Assembly (NCBI RefSeq): GCF_000380065.1
Contig: NZ_KB904387.1
Span: 1-64,000 of the forward strand
Direction: 5' to 3'
DNA from: Streptococcus massiliensis DSM 18628
GTDB taxonomy: Bacteria > Bacillota > Bacilli > Lactobacillales > Streptococcaceae
Length of the DNA: 64,000 nt
Both the position numbers and the translations under genes were made by a program. This document shows, one piece after another, positions 153-42,988 of the stretch; position 1 is the stretch's first letter; every line of letters begins with the position of its first letter. The notes under the pieces were generated by a model, which was not told the origin of the DNA, did not search any database, and worked only from the letters and a program-made list of their open reading frames with translations.

Positions 153-225
153 AAGATTCTTTCTAATGATGGTTTGATCGCTTTTCATTATAGGTCTTAT
201 GGGACTTTTTTTCTACAACAAAATA

Positions 226-275
226 GGCTCCATAATTCCTAAAGTGATTTTACTCACTACAGAAATTATAGAGCC
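226..275. repeat. Palindromic terminal-repeat sequence of the ISL3 element
   Basis: Left arm GGCTCCATAATTCCTAAAGT and right arm (reverse complement) GGCTCTATAATTTCTGTAGT are near-identical and face each other across a few bases. The symmetry continues outward as AAATAG/CTATTT (221-280). Such ends are what ISL3 transposases bind. Two facing arms make this a strong cruciform or hairpin rather than a single IR. Confidence 0.6.
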
Positions 276-24030: not shown

Positions 24031-25014
24031 ATGCTAAATGACTTTCCAATTTTCGATTATGAAGATGTGCAGCTTATTCCAAATAAGTGTATTATCAATA
24101 GCCGTTCGGAGGCAGATACGTCTATCACTTTTGGTAAACATACATTTAGGTTGCCAGTGGTGCCTGCCAATATGCAGACGATACTAGATGAGGATATTGC
24201 AGAAAAATTAGCTCAAAATGGCTATTTTTATATTATGCATCGTTTTGATGAAGAAGGACGTAAGCCTTTTGTCAAACGCATGCATGAACAGGGACTGATT
24301 GCTTCAATTTCTGTAGGTGTTAAAGACAATGAGTATGACTTTGTAACAAGCCTTGTAGATGATGCACCAGAATACATTACCATTGATATTGCCCATGGTC
24401 ATGCAGATAGCGTGATTAAAATGATTCAGCATATCAAGGCGACTTTACCTGAGACCTTTGTTATCGCAGGAAATGTTGGTACACCTGAGGCGGTTCGTGA
24501 GCTTGAAAACGCTGGAGCAGACGCGACCAAGGTCGGAATTGGCCCGGGTAAGGTTTGCATTACCAAGGTTAAAACTGGTTTTGGAACCGGTGGGTGGCAA
24601 TTAGCGGCACTGCGCTGGTGTGCCAAGGCAGCACGTAAGCCAATTATCGCGGACGGGGGGATTCGTACCCACGGTGATATTGCTAAGTCCATTCGTTTTG
24701 GTGCTAGCATGGTTATGATAGGTTCGCTCTTTGCGGGGCACATCGAAAGTCCAGGTAAGCTGGTAGAAATAGATGGTGAGCAGTTCAAAGAGTATTATGG
24801 TTCGGCTTCACAGTACCAAAAAGGAACTTATAAGAATGTTGAGGGGAAAAAGATTCTCCTGCCGGTAAAAGGCCATTTGAAAGATACCTTGATTGAAATG
24901 GAGCAGGATTTACAGAGCTCTATTTCCTATGCGGGTGGCAAGGATTTGTCTGGGCTGACACGTGTAGATTATGTTATCGTGAAAAACTCCATTTGGAATG
25001 GAGATTCGATTTAA
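24031..25014 (+). CDS. guaC: GMP reductase
   Basis: A 327-aa IMPDH/GMPR-family enzyme that deaminates GMP to IMP with NADPH, returning guanine nucleotides to the adenine branch. The catalytic Cys176 sits in [11 protein letters not shown]. The phosphate loop is [14 protein letters not shown], and the family flap region is GSASQYQKG. Length fits the Firmicutes GuaC2 type; no CBS domains are present, excluding IMP dehydrogenase. A guanine riboswitch begins 7 nt after the stop, ahead of xpt. Confidence 0.95.
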
Positions 25015-25021
25015 AAATAAA

Positions 25022-25174
25022 TTACTTATTTAAGTTATGGATTTGGCATAACGTCTCTACGGGGCACCTAAGGCTCCACAATAAGTAAGGAAAAACTTGG
25101 AGAAATTTTCTCTAGGTCTCTTTTTCCTATACTATTAGAGATGTTTTGCGGAGCTCATGGAGCTTCGCTTTTTG
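25022..25174 (+). promoter_or_regulatory. Guanine-class purine riboswitch controlling xpt-pbuX
   Basis: P1 TTACTTATT (25022-25030) pairs perfectly with AATAAGTAA (25080-25088). P2 is GTTATG/CATAAC with loop GATTTGG. J2/3 is GTCTCTAC. P3 is GGGGC/GCTCC with loop ACCTAAG. J3/1 is AC, so the ligand-pairing base is C, the guanine/hypoxanthine type, not adenine. Two hairpins follow: a near-perfect one at about 25096-25118 before CTCTTTTT, and GCGGAGCT-CATGG-AGCTTCGC before TTTTT (25149-25174). This fits transcriptional attenuation when guanine is present. No clear promoter lies between guaC and the aptamer. Confidence 0.85.
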
Positions 25175-40220: not shown

Positions 40221-40253
40221 TTAATTTTTTATGATTTCAATTTATTAAAAAAA

Positions 40254-40769
40254 TGATACAATAGTAAACGTTAAAAGAGTCCCGAAAAGGCGACTGAAGA
40301 AGTTTTGAAAATGTTGCTCATTTGAGAATTTTCTTTTCAAAGAGGAACACCTTTGCTCGGACTGATAAGTCCTCGCAAAGAACCTCCTTTATGCAACATC
40401 ATTTTAGAGATGTTGTTGTATTTTCTAGGTAGGAAAAGACTTTGCTCAAACCTAGTGGTTTTCGCAAAATTCTACTTAGAAAGAGAAAATCTTTGCTCGG
40501 ACTATAAGTCCTCGCAAAGCACCTTCTTCGTTCAACATTATTCTAGAGAAGTTGTCGGAGTTTAAACATTCTAGGAGAAAAAACCTTTGCTCAAACCTGG
40601 AGGTTCTTTGTAACTTTTTAACTTTCTAAGCAAGATGGCTGTTTCCTAGCTCATCTTGCTACGACAATTACTATAGTAATTGTCTAAGAAACTTACTGAG
40701 AAAAAATTAAAATAAGATCGATTTTGATTTTTTCTGGCGTAACAAATTCATTAAAAGGGGGACATGGAT
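40254..40769 (+). promoter_or_regulatory. metK promoter and long leader: predicted SMK (SAM-III) box with a very large insert
   Basis: Extended -10 TGATACAAT (40254-40262) puts the start near 40269. The 5' half GTCCCGAAAAGG (40279-40290) and the 3' half GTAAC (40739-40743)...AAAAGGGGGAC resemble the Enterococcus/Streptococcus SMK box: GTCCC (40279-40283) pairs perfectly with GGGAC (40759-40763), covering the metK Shine-Dalgarno. GAAGAA (40296-40301) can pair with TTTTTC (40729-40734). About 427 nt separate the halves. They hold the tandem hairpins described separately, a hairpin AGCAAGATG/CATCTTGCT (40629-40660) and the perfect palindrome at 40663-40684. Confidence 0.6.
40341..40630 (+). repeat. 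Tandem duplication (period about 140 nt) of hairpin cassettes inside the metK leader
   Basis: Hairpin A occurs twice (40351-40380, 40491-40519): CTTTGCTC-GGACT-loop-AGTCC-TCGCAAAG. A middle hairpin CAACATC/GATGTTG (40394-40415) recurs as CAACATT/GAAGTTG (40533-40554). Hairpin B occurs at 40440-40469 as CTTTGCTC-AAACC-TAGT-GGTTT-TCGCAAA and in decayed form from 40585. The frame CTTTGCTC...TCGCAAA is constant, while the inner stem changes on both sides together. Confidence 0.8.
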
Positions 40770-41957
40770 ATGTCTGAAAGGAAACTATTTACATCAGAGT
40801 CCGTATCAGAAGGGCATCCAGACAAGATTGCAGACCAAATTTCGGATGCGATTTTGGATGCAATTTTGGCGAAAGACCCAGAGGCGCATGTAGCGGCAGA
40901 AACGGCTGTTTATACGGGCTCGGTACACATTTTTGGTGAAATATCGACGACGGCTTACGTTGACATCAACCGAGTGGTGCGCGATACGATTGCTGAGATT
41001 GGCTACACAGATACGGCTTATGGCTTCTGTGCGGAAACGGTCGGCGTTCATCCGTCCTTGGTTGAGCAGTCGCCAGATATTGCCCAAGGGGTCAATGAAG
41101 CCTTGGAAGTACGTGGCAATAGCGACCAAGACCCGCTCGATTTGATTGGTGCGGGGGATCAAGGGCTCATGTTTGGCTTTGCGATTGATGAGACCGAGGA
41201 GCTCATGCCTTTGCCGATTTCGCTCAGTCACAGGCTGGTGCGTCGCTTGGCAGAATTGCGGAAAACAAAGAAGCTGTCCTACCTGCGTCCAGATGCTAAG
41301 TCGCAAGTGACGGTCGAATACGACGAAAACGACCGTCCAGTGCGCGTGGATACAGTGGTCATTTCCACCCAGCACGACCCAGATGTGACCAATGAGCAGC
41401 TGCACCAAGACATCATTGACAAGGTGATTAAGGTTATCATTCCAGCGGAATACTTGGATGAGGAGACCAAATTTTTCATCAATCCGACGGGGCGTTTTGT
41501 CATCGGTGGGCCGCAAGGCGATTCTGGCTTGACTGGCCGCAAGATTATCGTAGACACTTACGGTGGCTATGCGCGTCACGGTGGGGGAGCCTTTTCTGGT
41601 AAGGATGCGACCAAGGTTGACCGTTCGGCTTCCTATGCAGCGCGCTATATCGCTAAAAACATCGTAGCAGCAGGTCTTGCCAAGAAAGCAGAAGTCCAGC
41701 TGGCTTATGCGATTGGAGTGGCGCATCCAGTCTCTGTGCGGATTGATACTTTCGGCACGGCTAAGGTGGCGGAAAGCCGTTTGGAAAAAACGGTACGACA
41801 AATCTTTGACCTGCGCCCAGCAGGCATTATCCAAATGCTGGATTTGAAGCGTCCAATTTACCGACAAACCGCGGCTTATGGACATATGGGACGAACGGAC
41901 ATTGACCTGCCTTGGGAAAAATTAGACAAGGTAGAAGAATTGAAAAAAGTCTTATAA
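40770..41957 (+). CDS. metK: S-adenosylmethionine synthetase
   Basis: A 395-aa MetK that makes SAM from methionine and ATP. Substrate motifs: [17 protein letters not shown] at the N-terminus, [12 protein letters not shown] and [16 protein letters not shown]. Start set at ATG 40770 (MSERKLF), 8 nt after GGGGG; ATG 40764 is only 2 nt from it. The Shine-Dalgarno is predicted to be hidden when SAM binds the leader. Confidence 0.97.
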
Positions 41958-41973
41958 TGACGTAAAAAAGGGA

Positions 41974-42141
41974 GTGGGACAGAACTACTTCCTGTAAAGG
42001 AATAGTTCGTCGTCCCACCCCCGCGATGCCTATTAGACTTGTACGGAGCCTATAATGGCGAACGTAGAAGCCAAGAGGCTACCGCGTCTTGCAGATAATC
42101 CAAATTAATTTTAGAGGCTGAGAACTATTGTCCCAGCCTCT
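41974..42141. repeat. Composite dispersed streptococcal intergenic repeat with terminator hairpins
   Basis: Three consecutive foldbacks fill the space between the convergent metK and degV genes: GTGGGAC...GTCCCAC with inner GAACTA/TAGTTC (41974-42018); a middle block bounded by CGCG at 42022 and 42089; and AGAGGCTG...CAGCCTCT (42114-42136) followed by TTTCTTT. The heads GAGTGGGACAGAA and TTGTCCCAGCCTC are the hallmark of a repeat I remember as common between streptococcal genes. It probably terminates both genes. Confidence 0.55.
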
Positions 42142-42145
42142 TTCT

Positions 42146-42988
42146 TTATGAAATTTCATATCCAATCAAAAGCCCACCTTCTTCAGCATAGAAACTGCAT
42201 AGACCAGAAGTTGGTAATTCTTCAATAGCTGCTTGAGGGTAGTCTGCTCGAATGAGTTGGCTCAACTCTTGACAGAATTTATCATTATGACGATGTGCCA
42301 TGACAATTTTTCCACCAGCATAACCAGCTTTTTTCATTTCGTCATAAGTGGCAAAGAGTGATTTTTTATACCCACGAGCCTTTTGCAGTAATTCTAAAGT
42401 TCCTTCGCGACTTGCTTCGCCAACCATGCGGATATTGAGTAGCCCGACTACAGCTCCGATCAGTTTACTGAGGCGACCATTTTTTACTAAGTTGTCAACT
42501 TTAGCAAGGACAAAAATTAACTTAGTCTTTTTTTGGTAGTCGGTTATCTTTGTTACAACCTGATCAAAAGTTAATTCTTGGTTAATCAATTCTCCTAATT
42601 TAGTCATAAGTAGGTCAATTTCGCCGCCAGCTGATAGACTATCAATCACATGGATATTAACATTAGGATGTTCTTCTTGGTATAATTGTTTAGCAACTTG
42701 AGCACTATTTTGACTGCCAGATAATGTCCCTGTAATGGTGATGATAATAATATTATCTGCTCCGTCAAAGGCTTTTATATAGTCATCTGGACTAGGACAG
42801 GCTGACTTTGAAGCGGTTGAAGTAGTGTACATTTTATCCATCATTTTGTCAATGTCTAAAGTCAGATCATCAACGAAAATCTCTTGCCCTACCTGAATGG
42901 TGAGGGGGACACGTTCAAATTTCCCTTTTGAAGTCAAGTCTAGTGTTTTTAAATCGCAGCCGGAATCAGCTACAAGTTTCCAAGTCAT
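42146..42988 (-). CDS. DegV family fatty-acid-binding protein (second copy)
   Basis: A 280-aa DegV protein, distant from the one at 29 kb. It begins MTWKLVADSGCDLK and has SACPSPDDYIKAF (head-group loop), TGTLSGSQNSAQVA and LVKNGRLSKL. It may serve as a FakB subunit presenting a fatty acid to its kinase. ATG at 42988 has TAGGAGAA 7 nt upstream on the minus strand. It is monocistronic and convergent with metK. Confidence 0.9.
   Translation of the reverse strand: MTWKLVADSGCDLKTLDLTSKGKFERVPLTIQVGQEIFVDDLTLDIDKMMDKMYTTSTASKSACPSPDDYIKAFDGADNIIIITITGTLSGSQNSAQVAKQLYQEEHPNVNIHVIDSLSAGGEIDLLMTKLGELINQELTFDQVVTKITDYQKKTKLIFVLAKVDNLVKNGRLSKLIGAVVGLLNIRMVGEASREGTLELLQKARGYKKSLFATYDEMKKAGYAGGKIVMAHRHNDKFCQELSQLIRADYPQAAIEELPTSGLCSFYAEEGGLLIGYEIS

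What the first reader, a model, noticed from the sequence alone, without database searches (positions are those of the whole stretch)
40254..40769. metK leader: a SAM-III (SMK) box split by an insert of about 427 nt
The 5' segment GTCCCGAAAAGG and the 3' segment GTAAC...AAAAGGGGGAC have the look of the SMK box of Enterococcus and Streptococcus metK. GTCCC pairs exactly with GGGAC, which is the metK Shine-Dalgarno region, and differs from the UUCCC/GGGAA pair I remember for E. faecalis in a compensatory way. The linker in known SMK boxes is usually short or of modest length. Here the two halves are far apart and the space is full of ordered hairpins. The leader may act as a two-part sensor, with the insert adding a second input or an sRNA. 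The weak point is the P2 helix, which I could build only with mismatches and a G-U pair.
Basis: partly seen in the sequence, partly recalled or inferred. Interest (0 to 1): 0.75.

Follow-up and report, generated by a model that had tools for sequence, protein, structure and literature searches.

The report
SAM riboswitch stuffed with structured repeats
The control region of a Streptococcus gene for making SAM looks like a known SAM-sensing RNA switch whose two loops have been filled with folded RNA modules, one of them a copy of a widespread Streptococcus RNA repeat that often sits at the ends of housekeeping genes.

Summary
The metK leader is very probably a real SMK (SAM-III) box. Models trained on 138 other Streptococcus leaders rank its three parts as the best sites in 64 kb: 40269-40290, 40602-40619 and 40750-40765. 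GTAAC at 40739-40743 is not the SAM-pocket strand; that strand lies in GGTTCTTTGTAAC, 40602-40614. So there are two inserts. Insert A (about 310 nt, P3 side) holds three full copies and one half copy of a CUUUGC/GCAAAG hairpin whose stem-forming exact matches in 147 genomes lie only at metK. Insert B (40618-40743) fills the P4 loop and belongs to a covarying, dispersed Streptococcus RNA family of about 130 nt (917 matches in 133 of 147 genomes). A model built only from copies away from metK finds it at 97 bits, E 1.6e-22. In 48 of 63 sampled loci the best copy starts exactly on the upstream gene's stop codon (groEL, argS, prfC, nrdE, pheS and others). Long inserts are common: 73 of 139 leaders. 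Best reading: a translational SMK switch (P0 ON against P1/P4 OFF) that tolerates folded repeats in its loops. SAM binding is untested, and the P2/P3 junction here is not canonical.

The parts
40235..40262 (+). putative promoter: weak -35 TTTCAA (40235-40240), 16-nt spacer, -10 TACAAT (40257-40262)
   Evidence: read; a -10-like hexamer (one of nine listed) lies 13-16 nt, once 22 nt, before GTCCC in 137 of 139 leaders; the general promoter scan did not report this site
40270..40277 (+). P0 5' strand GUUAAAAG (ON-state helix), pairs with 40615-40622
   Evidence: sequence; constrained folds; P0 of at least 8 of 9 pairs in 111 of 139 leaders against a mean of 5.5 with shuffled 5' strands
40279..40283 (+). 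P1 5' strand GUCCC (anti-Shine-Dalgarno)
   Evidence: PWM hit 40269-40290, 21.2 bits, best in 64 kb
40284..40290 (+). J1/2 and P2 5' strand (GAAAAGG; AAGG = 40287-40290)
   Evidence: same PWM hit
40291..40601 (+). insert A, P3 side: three full and one half copy of the CUUUGC-UC..UC-GCAAAG hairpin plus other hairpins; a substitute P3 40292-40302/40523-40533 is predicted
40351..40380 (+). hairpin copy 1
40440..40468 (+). hairpin copy 2
40491..40519 (+). hairpin copy 3
40585..40605 (+). half copy 4 (CUUUGCUCAAACC-UGGA-GGUU), its 3' arm replaced by the SMK core CUUUGU
   Evidence: sequence, repeats D2 and D3
40602..40614 (+). SMK middle core GGUUCUUUGUAAC: P2 3' strand CUUU 40606-40609, SAM-pocket strand GUAAC 40610-40614
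   Evidence: PWM hit 40602-40619, 26.7 bits, best in 64 kb
40614..40622 (+). shared switch strand CUUUUUAAC: pairs with 40270-40277 (P0, ON) or 40751-40758 (P4, OFF)
   Evidence: constrained folds
   Evidence: R2, built without any metK copy: 97.2 bits, E 1.6e-22; R1, which includes this copy: 105.3 bits
40751..40758 (+). P4 3' strand UUAAAAGG
   Evidence: constrained fold
40757..40763 (+). Shine-Dalgarno and P1 3' strand GGGGGAC (GGGAC = 40759-40763)
   Evidence: PWM hit 40750-40765, 25.1 bits
40770..41957 (+). metK; most listed homologues align from query residue 2 or 3 (MSERK), so ATG 40770 is the likely start rather than 40764

Best explanation
The leader is a translational SMK (SAM-III) riboswitch of metK. 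With SAM, GUCCC pairs with GGGAC of the Shine-Dalgarno region (P1). P2 (AAGG/CUUU), the GUAAC pocket strand and P4 (CUUUUUAA/UUAAAAGG) form, and metK translation is off. Without SAM, the 5' end GUUAAAAG takes the strand CUUUUUAAC to make P0, P4 and P1 open, and translation is on. The loops of the two peripheral hairpins carry cargo. The P3 side holds a hairpin found only at metK, which multiplies in tandem in some other species. The P4 loop holds a copy of a genus-wide, dispersed, structured RNA repeat. The cargo folds on its own and mainly sets the distance between the halves and the balance between the two states. It is tolerated because it sits in terminal loops. Shown: the three conserved SMK parts, family membership of insert B, covariation of insert B's family, and near-equal predicted energies of the two states. 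Inferred: SAM binding, control of metK, and that the cargo is mostly tolerated rather than a second sensor.
For: PWMs trained without the window put all three SMK parts here and in order. The 5' core, within 2 substitutions, is found in 139 of 150 metK loci of 147 genomes. Of the 11 misses, 7 have it outside the context the script required, one has a degenerate form (by eye), two are second metK copies without it, and one is masked. Insert B: R1; independent R2 97.2 bits, none of R2's 63 source loci having an SMK 5' core. Covariation: 33 of 38 pairs with both-side changes in 22 metK copies; in 126 copies elsewhere, aligned to the model, score 0.647 against at most 0.125 when slid, 36 of 38 pairs changed on both sides. 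Constrained folds: free -157.1, P1/P4 -155.9, P0 -156.0 kcal/mol. P0 has at least 8 of 9 pairs in 111 of 139 leaders; shuffling the 5' strand gives a mean of 5.5, maximum 12. A review gives the same two states for E. faecalis, ON with P0 and P5, OFF with P1 to P4, -18.8 and -17.4 (PMC6152003, passages). Long inserts in 73 of 139 leaders, at the same two places by eye.
Against: No SAM binding or expression data. Rfam SAM-III gives no match here. In leaders with the same or nearly the same 5' P3 strand (L010, L015, L057, L135) the base of P3 abuts P2; in the window that 3' strand is gone. The substitute P3 (40292-40302/40523-40533) leaves about 72 nt between P3 and P2, so the P2/P3 junction is not canonical. 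P1-only and P0-only folds pair the core CUUUGU with the GCAAAG arm of hairpin 1 instead of making P2, and forcing P1+P2 costs about 8 kcal/mol (-148.8 against -157.1). Energy models for a 500-nt RNA are rough. P1 strands were invariant in nearly every leader printed, so they give no covariation support within the genus.
Confidence: 0.75

Rival explanations
1. Decayed or de-tuned switch: the inserts and the loss of the P3 3' strand have broken the SAM pocket in this lineage, so the leader is constitutive or responds only weakly.
For: The P3 3' strand seen in L010, L015, L057 and L135 is absent; P1+P2 is about 8 kcal/mol above the free minimum and the core CUUUGU prefers a hairpin arm.
Against: All three core parts are kept with high PWM scores although the sequence between them has turned over; P0 and P4 are intact and the two states are within about 0.1 kcal/mol.
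Confidence: 0.15
2. Composite regulator: insert B and/or the insert A hairpins are a second input (ligand, protein, tRNA or ribosome-sensitive switch) coupled to the SMK core. UUAC inside the element can pair either with its own 3' GUAA or with a 5' GUAA, which in several species is the SMK pocket strand.
For: The element is a conserved, covarying fold with invariant unpaired stretches. Copies at metK cluster on a tree: 7 label changes against a shuffled mean of 36.2 and minimum of 28 in 300 shuffles, so they look like old residents. In 9 of the 12 leaders whose P0 falls below 7 of 9 pairs, an element copy directly follows the pocket strand.
Against: The same family sits at many unrelated genes, 66 of 139 leaders have no long insert, and no ligand or partner is known. 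In the window P0 is intact and the element lies in the P4 loop.
Confidence: 0.25
3. Pure hitch-hiking: both inserts are selfish repeats (MITE-like or slippage products) with no effect.
For: Tandem copy number varies (1-5 hairpins; 1-3 elements). BOX, RUP and SPRITE repeats of the pneumococcus are judged parasitic (PMC3049150, abstract).
Against: Sense orientation and exact register on stop codons in 48 of 63 sampled loci, strong covariation and clustering of metK copies suggest constraint, though a site-specific mobile repeat could also give the first.
Confidence: 0.35

Closest known systems
SMK box / SAM-III riboswitch (Rfam RF01767; Enterococcus faecalis metK)
   Same: Position before metK, anti-SD/SD helix with GGGGGA, GA(A)AAGG junction, CUUUGUAAC-like pocket strand, P0-versus-P1/P4 logic; named Enterococcus loci L238 and L239 show the same layout.
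   Different: About 500 nt instead of the 80-134 of short Streptococcus leaders; loops P3 and P4 hold structured repeats; the P2/P3 junction in this copy is not canonical; P0 pairs with a strand just 3' of the pocket, whereas in L238/L239 the 5' GUUACAAG is complementary to the pocket strand CUUGUAAC itself.
Pneumococcal trp leader: two T boxes separated by a BOX repeat (PMC3049150, passages)
   Same: A dispersed structured repeat inside a riboswitch leader, with the riboswitches apparently still working according to the authors.
   Different: There the BOX lies between two complete riboswitches; here the repeats lie inside the loops of one. The repeat does not contain the four primer stretches printed in that paper (at least 5 substitutions in every one of 148 copies; no fetched locus held a BOX as positive control).
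S. suis BOX-type elements with boxE (115 nt) and boxF (133 nt) modules (PMC3049150, section 7)
   Same: Composite Streptococcus repeats of similar size.
   Different: Their sequences are not given in the text read, so identity with the present family is not tested.

Membership tests
SMK box / SAM-III | directly upstream of metK with SD inside P1 | tested here: met
   GGGAC 40759-40763 pairs with GUCCC 40279-40283; metK start 40770
SMK box / SAM-III | conserved J1/2 and pocket strand (GAAAAGG; CUUUGUAAC) | tested here: met
   PWM hits 40269 and 40602, best in 64 kb. That G71 and A73 form triples in E. faecalis is from PMC3764141 passages; matching them to GUAAC here is by recalled numbering
SMK box / SAM-III | P2 next to a P3 hairpin | tested here: inconclusive
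   P2 AAGG/CUUU possible but not preferred by the folding program; P3 base of other leaders absent; substitute P3 40292-40302/40523-40533 leaves 72 nt
SMK box / SAM-III | P4 and an alternative P0 (ON) helix | tested here: met
   P4 40614-40621/40751-40758, P0 40270-40277/40615-40622; -155.9 and -156.0 kcal/mol; P0 in 111 of 139 leaders with at least 8 of 9 pairs, shuffled mean 5.5
SMK box / SAM-III | score over Rfam gathering cut-off (45 bits) | tested here: not met
   no match in the window; but 0 of 147 Streptococcus genomes exceed the cut-off, best 39.7 bits, so the model under-covers the genus
SMK box / SAM-III | binds SAM and lowers metK translation | not testable with these tools
   no assay available
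dispersed Streptococcus three-hairpin element (this work, models R1/R2) | match to a model built only from copies away from metK | tested here: met
   97.2 bits, E 1.6e-22
dispersed Streptococcus three-hairpin element (this work, models R1/R2) | 5' end on the stop codon of the preceding gene (common, not universal) | tested here: not met
   48 of 63 sampled loci elsewhere; in the metK leader the 5' end is UUAAC of the switch strand
BOX element (pneumococcus) | BOX sequence (published primer stretches) | tested here: not met
   at least 5 substitutions in all 148 aligned copies, without a positive control among the loci

The most novel reading that the evidence does not exclude
Streptococcus has an undescribed, genus-wide class of structured RNA element, about 130 nt, that commonly starts on the stop codon of housekeeping genes. 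The genus has domesticated it inside the metK SAM riboswitch. Where the element directly follows the pocket strand and P0 has been lost (9 of 139 leaders), its own CUUAC strand would replace P0 as the partner of the SAM-pocket GUAA. That would make a repeat the switching arm of a riboswitch.
Probability: 0.2. Interest if true: 0.85.

Novelty: new variant of a known kind. Interest (0 to 1): 0.66.

Why it matters
One paper calls SAM-III one of the smallest riboswitches in its study (PMC3764141 passage). In Streptococcus these leaders range from about 80 to 881 nt and hold folded repeats, which makes it testable how a riboswitch keeps its switching energy while its loops grow several-fold. Standard annotation misses them: Rfam's cut-off is reached in 0 of 147 genomes. 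The embedded element itself appears to be a large, strongly covarying RNA family without an Rfam match over cut-off. In the loci sampled it is tied to the stop codons of groEL, argS, prfC, nrdE, pheS and others, which raises the question of what a structured RNA does at the exact point where translation ends.

Tried and rejected
Rejected: GTAAC at 40739 as the SMK 3' half. No support: internal transcription start (one search found one promoter-like site, on the minus strand; shuffles give a mean of 1.4). Rejected: insert as an Rfam family (only weak matches of unrelated families, all below their cut-offs; none over cut-off in 10 related loci). Rejected: insert B as pneumococcal BOX, by primer stretches only and without a positive control. 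No match to the leader in the phage collection. Left open: a contact of the conserved apical AUCG of the element's third hairpin with the SMK junction CGAU/CGAA; by eye it does not covary. The upstream-versus-downstream pairing of UUAC is not decided: some rows keep one partner, some the other. The window copy's place on the element tree is weakly supported; its nearest copies by distance include copies away from metK. The 63 loci come from the higher-scoring listed places of two capped searches and include many orthologues, so 48 of 63 is not a genome-wide rate. Papers: the primary SMK papers looked up are not held, so whether they already report long Streptococcus linkers could not be checked; I recall a mention of variable sequences outside the core, and the title of Lu 2011 says so (seen in a reference list). 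Searches (listings with abstract starts; passages of some papers read) showed no paper describing such inserts or this element family. The supplement of the 104-motif paper, whose table lists a Streptococcus motif ScRE without an Rfam number, could not be read.

Full report
WHAT WAS CLAIMED.

THE SMK BOX IS THERE, BUT ITS MIDDLE WAS MISPLACED. I took the metK leaders of 147 genomes of the same genus. There are 150 metK loci in all. A 5' core GTCCCGANAAGG, within two substitutions and preceded by GTT, was found in 139 of 150. Of the 11 misses, seven have the core without that context, one (L023) has a degenerate form by eye, two are second metK copies without it, and one is masked. Position-weight models of three parts, trained on the 138 leaders other than the window's (50, 26 and 21 distinct strings) and scanned over both strands of the 64 kb, each rank the metK leader first: 5' part 40269-40290 (21.2 bits, best other 2.6), middle part 40602-40619 (26.7, best other 10.0), 3' part 40750-40765 (25.1, best other 8.9). 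With the right middle part, P2 is AAGG 40287-40290 with CUUU 40606-40609, and the pocket strand is GUAAC 40610-40614. Rfam does not find the box in the window. It gives no hit over its own cut-off in any of 147 Streptococcus genomes (best 39.7 of 45 bits; 61 genomes have a hit at E below 0.001), so this is a limit of the model.

THE SWITCH. Folding 40265-40775 with P1 enforced gives -155.9 kcal/mol and produces P4 (40614-40621 with 40751-40758). Enforcing P0 (40270-40277 with 40615-40622) gives -156.0, and the free minimum is -157.1. P0 and P4 share one strand, so they exclude each other. P0 has at least 8 of 9 pairs (G-U allowed, best of six offsets) in 111 of 139 leaders; with the letters of the 5' strand shuffled the mean is 5.5 and the maximum 12 in 100 rounds, and among 55 distinct strand pairs it is 35 against a mean of 2.5. 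A review describes the same logic for E. faecalis: ON with P0 and P5, OFF with P1 to P4, -18.8 and -17.4 kcal/mol (PMC6152003, passages seen). In two named Enterococcus loci, L238 and L239, the 5' strand GUUACAAG is complementary to the pocket strand CUUGUAAC itself, whereas in most Streptococcus leaders its partner lies just 3' of the pocket.

LONG INSERTS ARE COMMON. The distance from GTCCC to just past the metK start codon is 80-134 nt in 66 of 139 leaders and 139-881 nt in 73 of 139; the window has 499. Two of the long ones contain runs of N. By eye the inserts lie in two places, the P3 loop and the P4 loop. The window has both.

INSERT A (40291-40601). It holds hairpins CUUUGC-UC(A)-stem-loop-stem-(U)UC-GCAAAG: three full copies and one half copy whose 3' arm is replaced by the core CUUUGU. 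The upper stems differ in compensating ways (GGACU/AGUCC, AAACC/GGUUU; AAGAC/GUCUU elsewhere). An exact pattern search of 147 genomes gave 33 matches in 21 genomes. Of these, 21 lie in metK leaders of 10 genomes; the other 12 lie elsewhere and have inner stems of at most 3 pairs, against 4-6 in the leaders. A looser count within leaders gives 29 copies in 14 of 139, in tandem with a 39-nt period in several. Its GCAAAG arm is complementary to the core CUUUGU, and the folding program uses that pairing. Whether this is regulation or a flaw is open.

INSERT B (40618-40743). This is a three-hairpin element: a closing helix around two hairpins, then UUAC-UAG, a third hairpin with apical AUCG, then CGUC-GUAAC. 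In 22 metK copies, 33 of 38 predicted pairs have both-side changes. The model R1 finds 917 matches (E up to 0.1) in 133 of 147 genomes, 1 to 23 per genome (summed); the metK leaders account for only 55 matches with the second model. In a search of the order, 16 of 118 genomes match at E up to 0.001, all in this one genus of 42. From 63 loci away from metK I collected 126 copies. Their covariation score is 0.647 against at most 0.125 for slid structures, 92.4% of cells are paired, and 36 of 38 pairs have both-side changes; this alignment was fitted to the model, which favours the structure. A second model R2 made only from these, with no SMK 5' core in any of the 63 loci, hits the window at 97.2 bits, E 1.6e-22, and hits 45 of 150 metK loci (10 of 52, 35 of 98). 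Rfam has no match over cut-off in 10 such loci.

WHERE THE ELEMENT OFTEN SITS. For the best-scoring copy of each of the 63 loci, positions 2-4 are the stop codon of the preceding same-strand reading frame in 48 (47 TAA, 1 TGA); 7 more have TAG at positions 6-8; 8 do not fit. The 63 were taken from the higher-scoring listed places of two searches and include many orthologues, so this is not a random sample. The 48 fall behind 10 different genes. One representative of each was scanned with NCBIfam: groEL, argS, prfC, nrdE, pheS, obgE and ruvA exceed a curated cut-off; a C-terminal piece of a dnaK-like protein, a corA-like protein and an ABC ATPase match below it. Six further weaker copies exist in the window's own genome, 32-48 bits; two of these lie before glyQ-like and pyrE-like genes, named here by eye from the protein starts.

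HISTORY. On a tree of the 112 best copies, 47 of them at metK, metK and other copies interchange 7 times against a shuffled mean of 36.2 and minimum of 28 in 300 shuffles. The element has thus mostly stayed at metK rather than arriving afresh in each species. The window copy cannot be placed: its nearest neighbours are distant, support on its path is mixed, and its nearest copies by distance include copies away from metK.

HOW IT WORKS, MOST LIKELY. A translational SMK switch with cargo in its loops. The cargo folds on its own and probably shifts the balance and speed of switching. In 12 of 139 leaders P0 is below 7 of 9 pairs, and in 9 of these an element directly follows the pocket strand. 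There the element's CUUAC could pair with the pocket GUAA and take P0's part. That is the boldest reading and is not shown.

WEAK POINTS. The 3' strand of P3 seen in L010, L015, L057 and L135 is missing in the window. A substitute P3 leaves about 72 nt before P2, and P1+P2 together cost about 8 kcal/mol. So this particular copy may be de-tuned or broken. SAM binding is untested.

COMPARED WITH WHAT IS KNOWN. The nearest parallel in print that I could read is the pneumococcal trp leader with a BOX repeat between two T boxes (PMC3049150, abstract, passages and section 7). The present element does not contain the BOX primer stretches; S. suis boxE/boxF could not be compared. [quoted passage not shown] The primary SMK papers were not available.

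Noticed in passing
window 165-275: Match to Rfam Srn266 (Streptococcus RNA 266), 108.9 bits.
   Followed up: no
window 25006-25101: Purine riboswitch aptamer, 53 bits.
   Followed up: no
window 41970-42150: Intergenic repeat-like stretch after metK (GGGAGTGGGACAGAA...GTCCCACC...GTCCCAGCCTC); a similar stretch is seen by eye in L011. Model R2 gives a weak hit at 42026-42157 (15.5 bits, E 0.09).
   Followed up: no
L024, L025, L117, L123, L126, L127, L129, L152, L159, L160: A different P3-loop insert with shared stretches (such as CTTCGTTAGCTCATCTTGATATACTTCAGTATTATCTGCGA) in metK leaders of other Streptococcus species, seen by eye; possibly another structured domain.
   Followed up: no
L204 1502-1631 and L205 1500-1627 (own genome): Divergent relatives of the insert B element before a glyQ-like and a pyrE-like gene.
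   Followed up: partly
L125 and L147: Second metK copies (genomes G066 and G153) without an SMK 5' core within 1.1 kb.
   Followed up: no
metK leaders of 147 Streptococcus genomes: Rfam's SAM-III cut-off is reached in 0 of 147 genomes although the SMK 5' core is present at 146 of 150 metK loci.
   Followed up: yes
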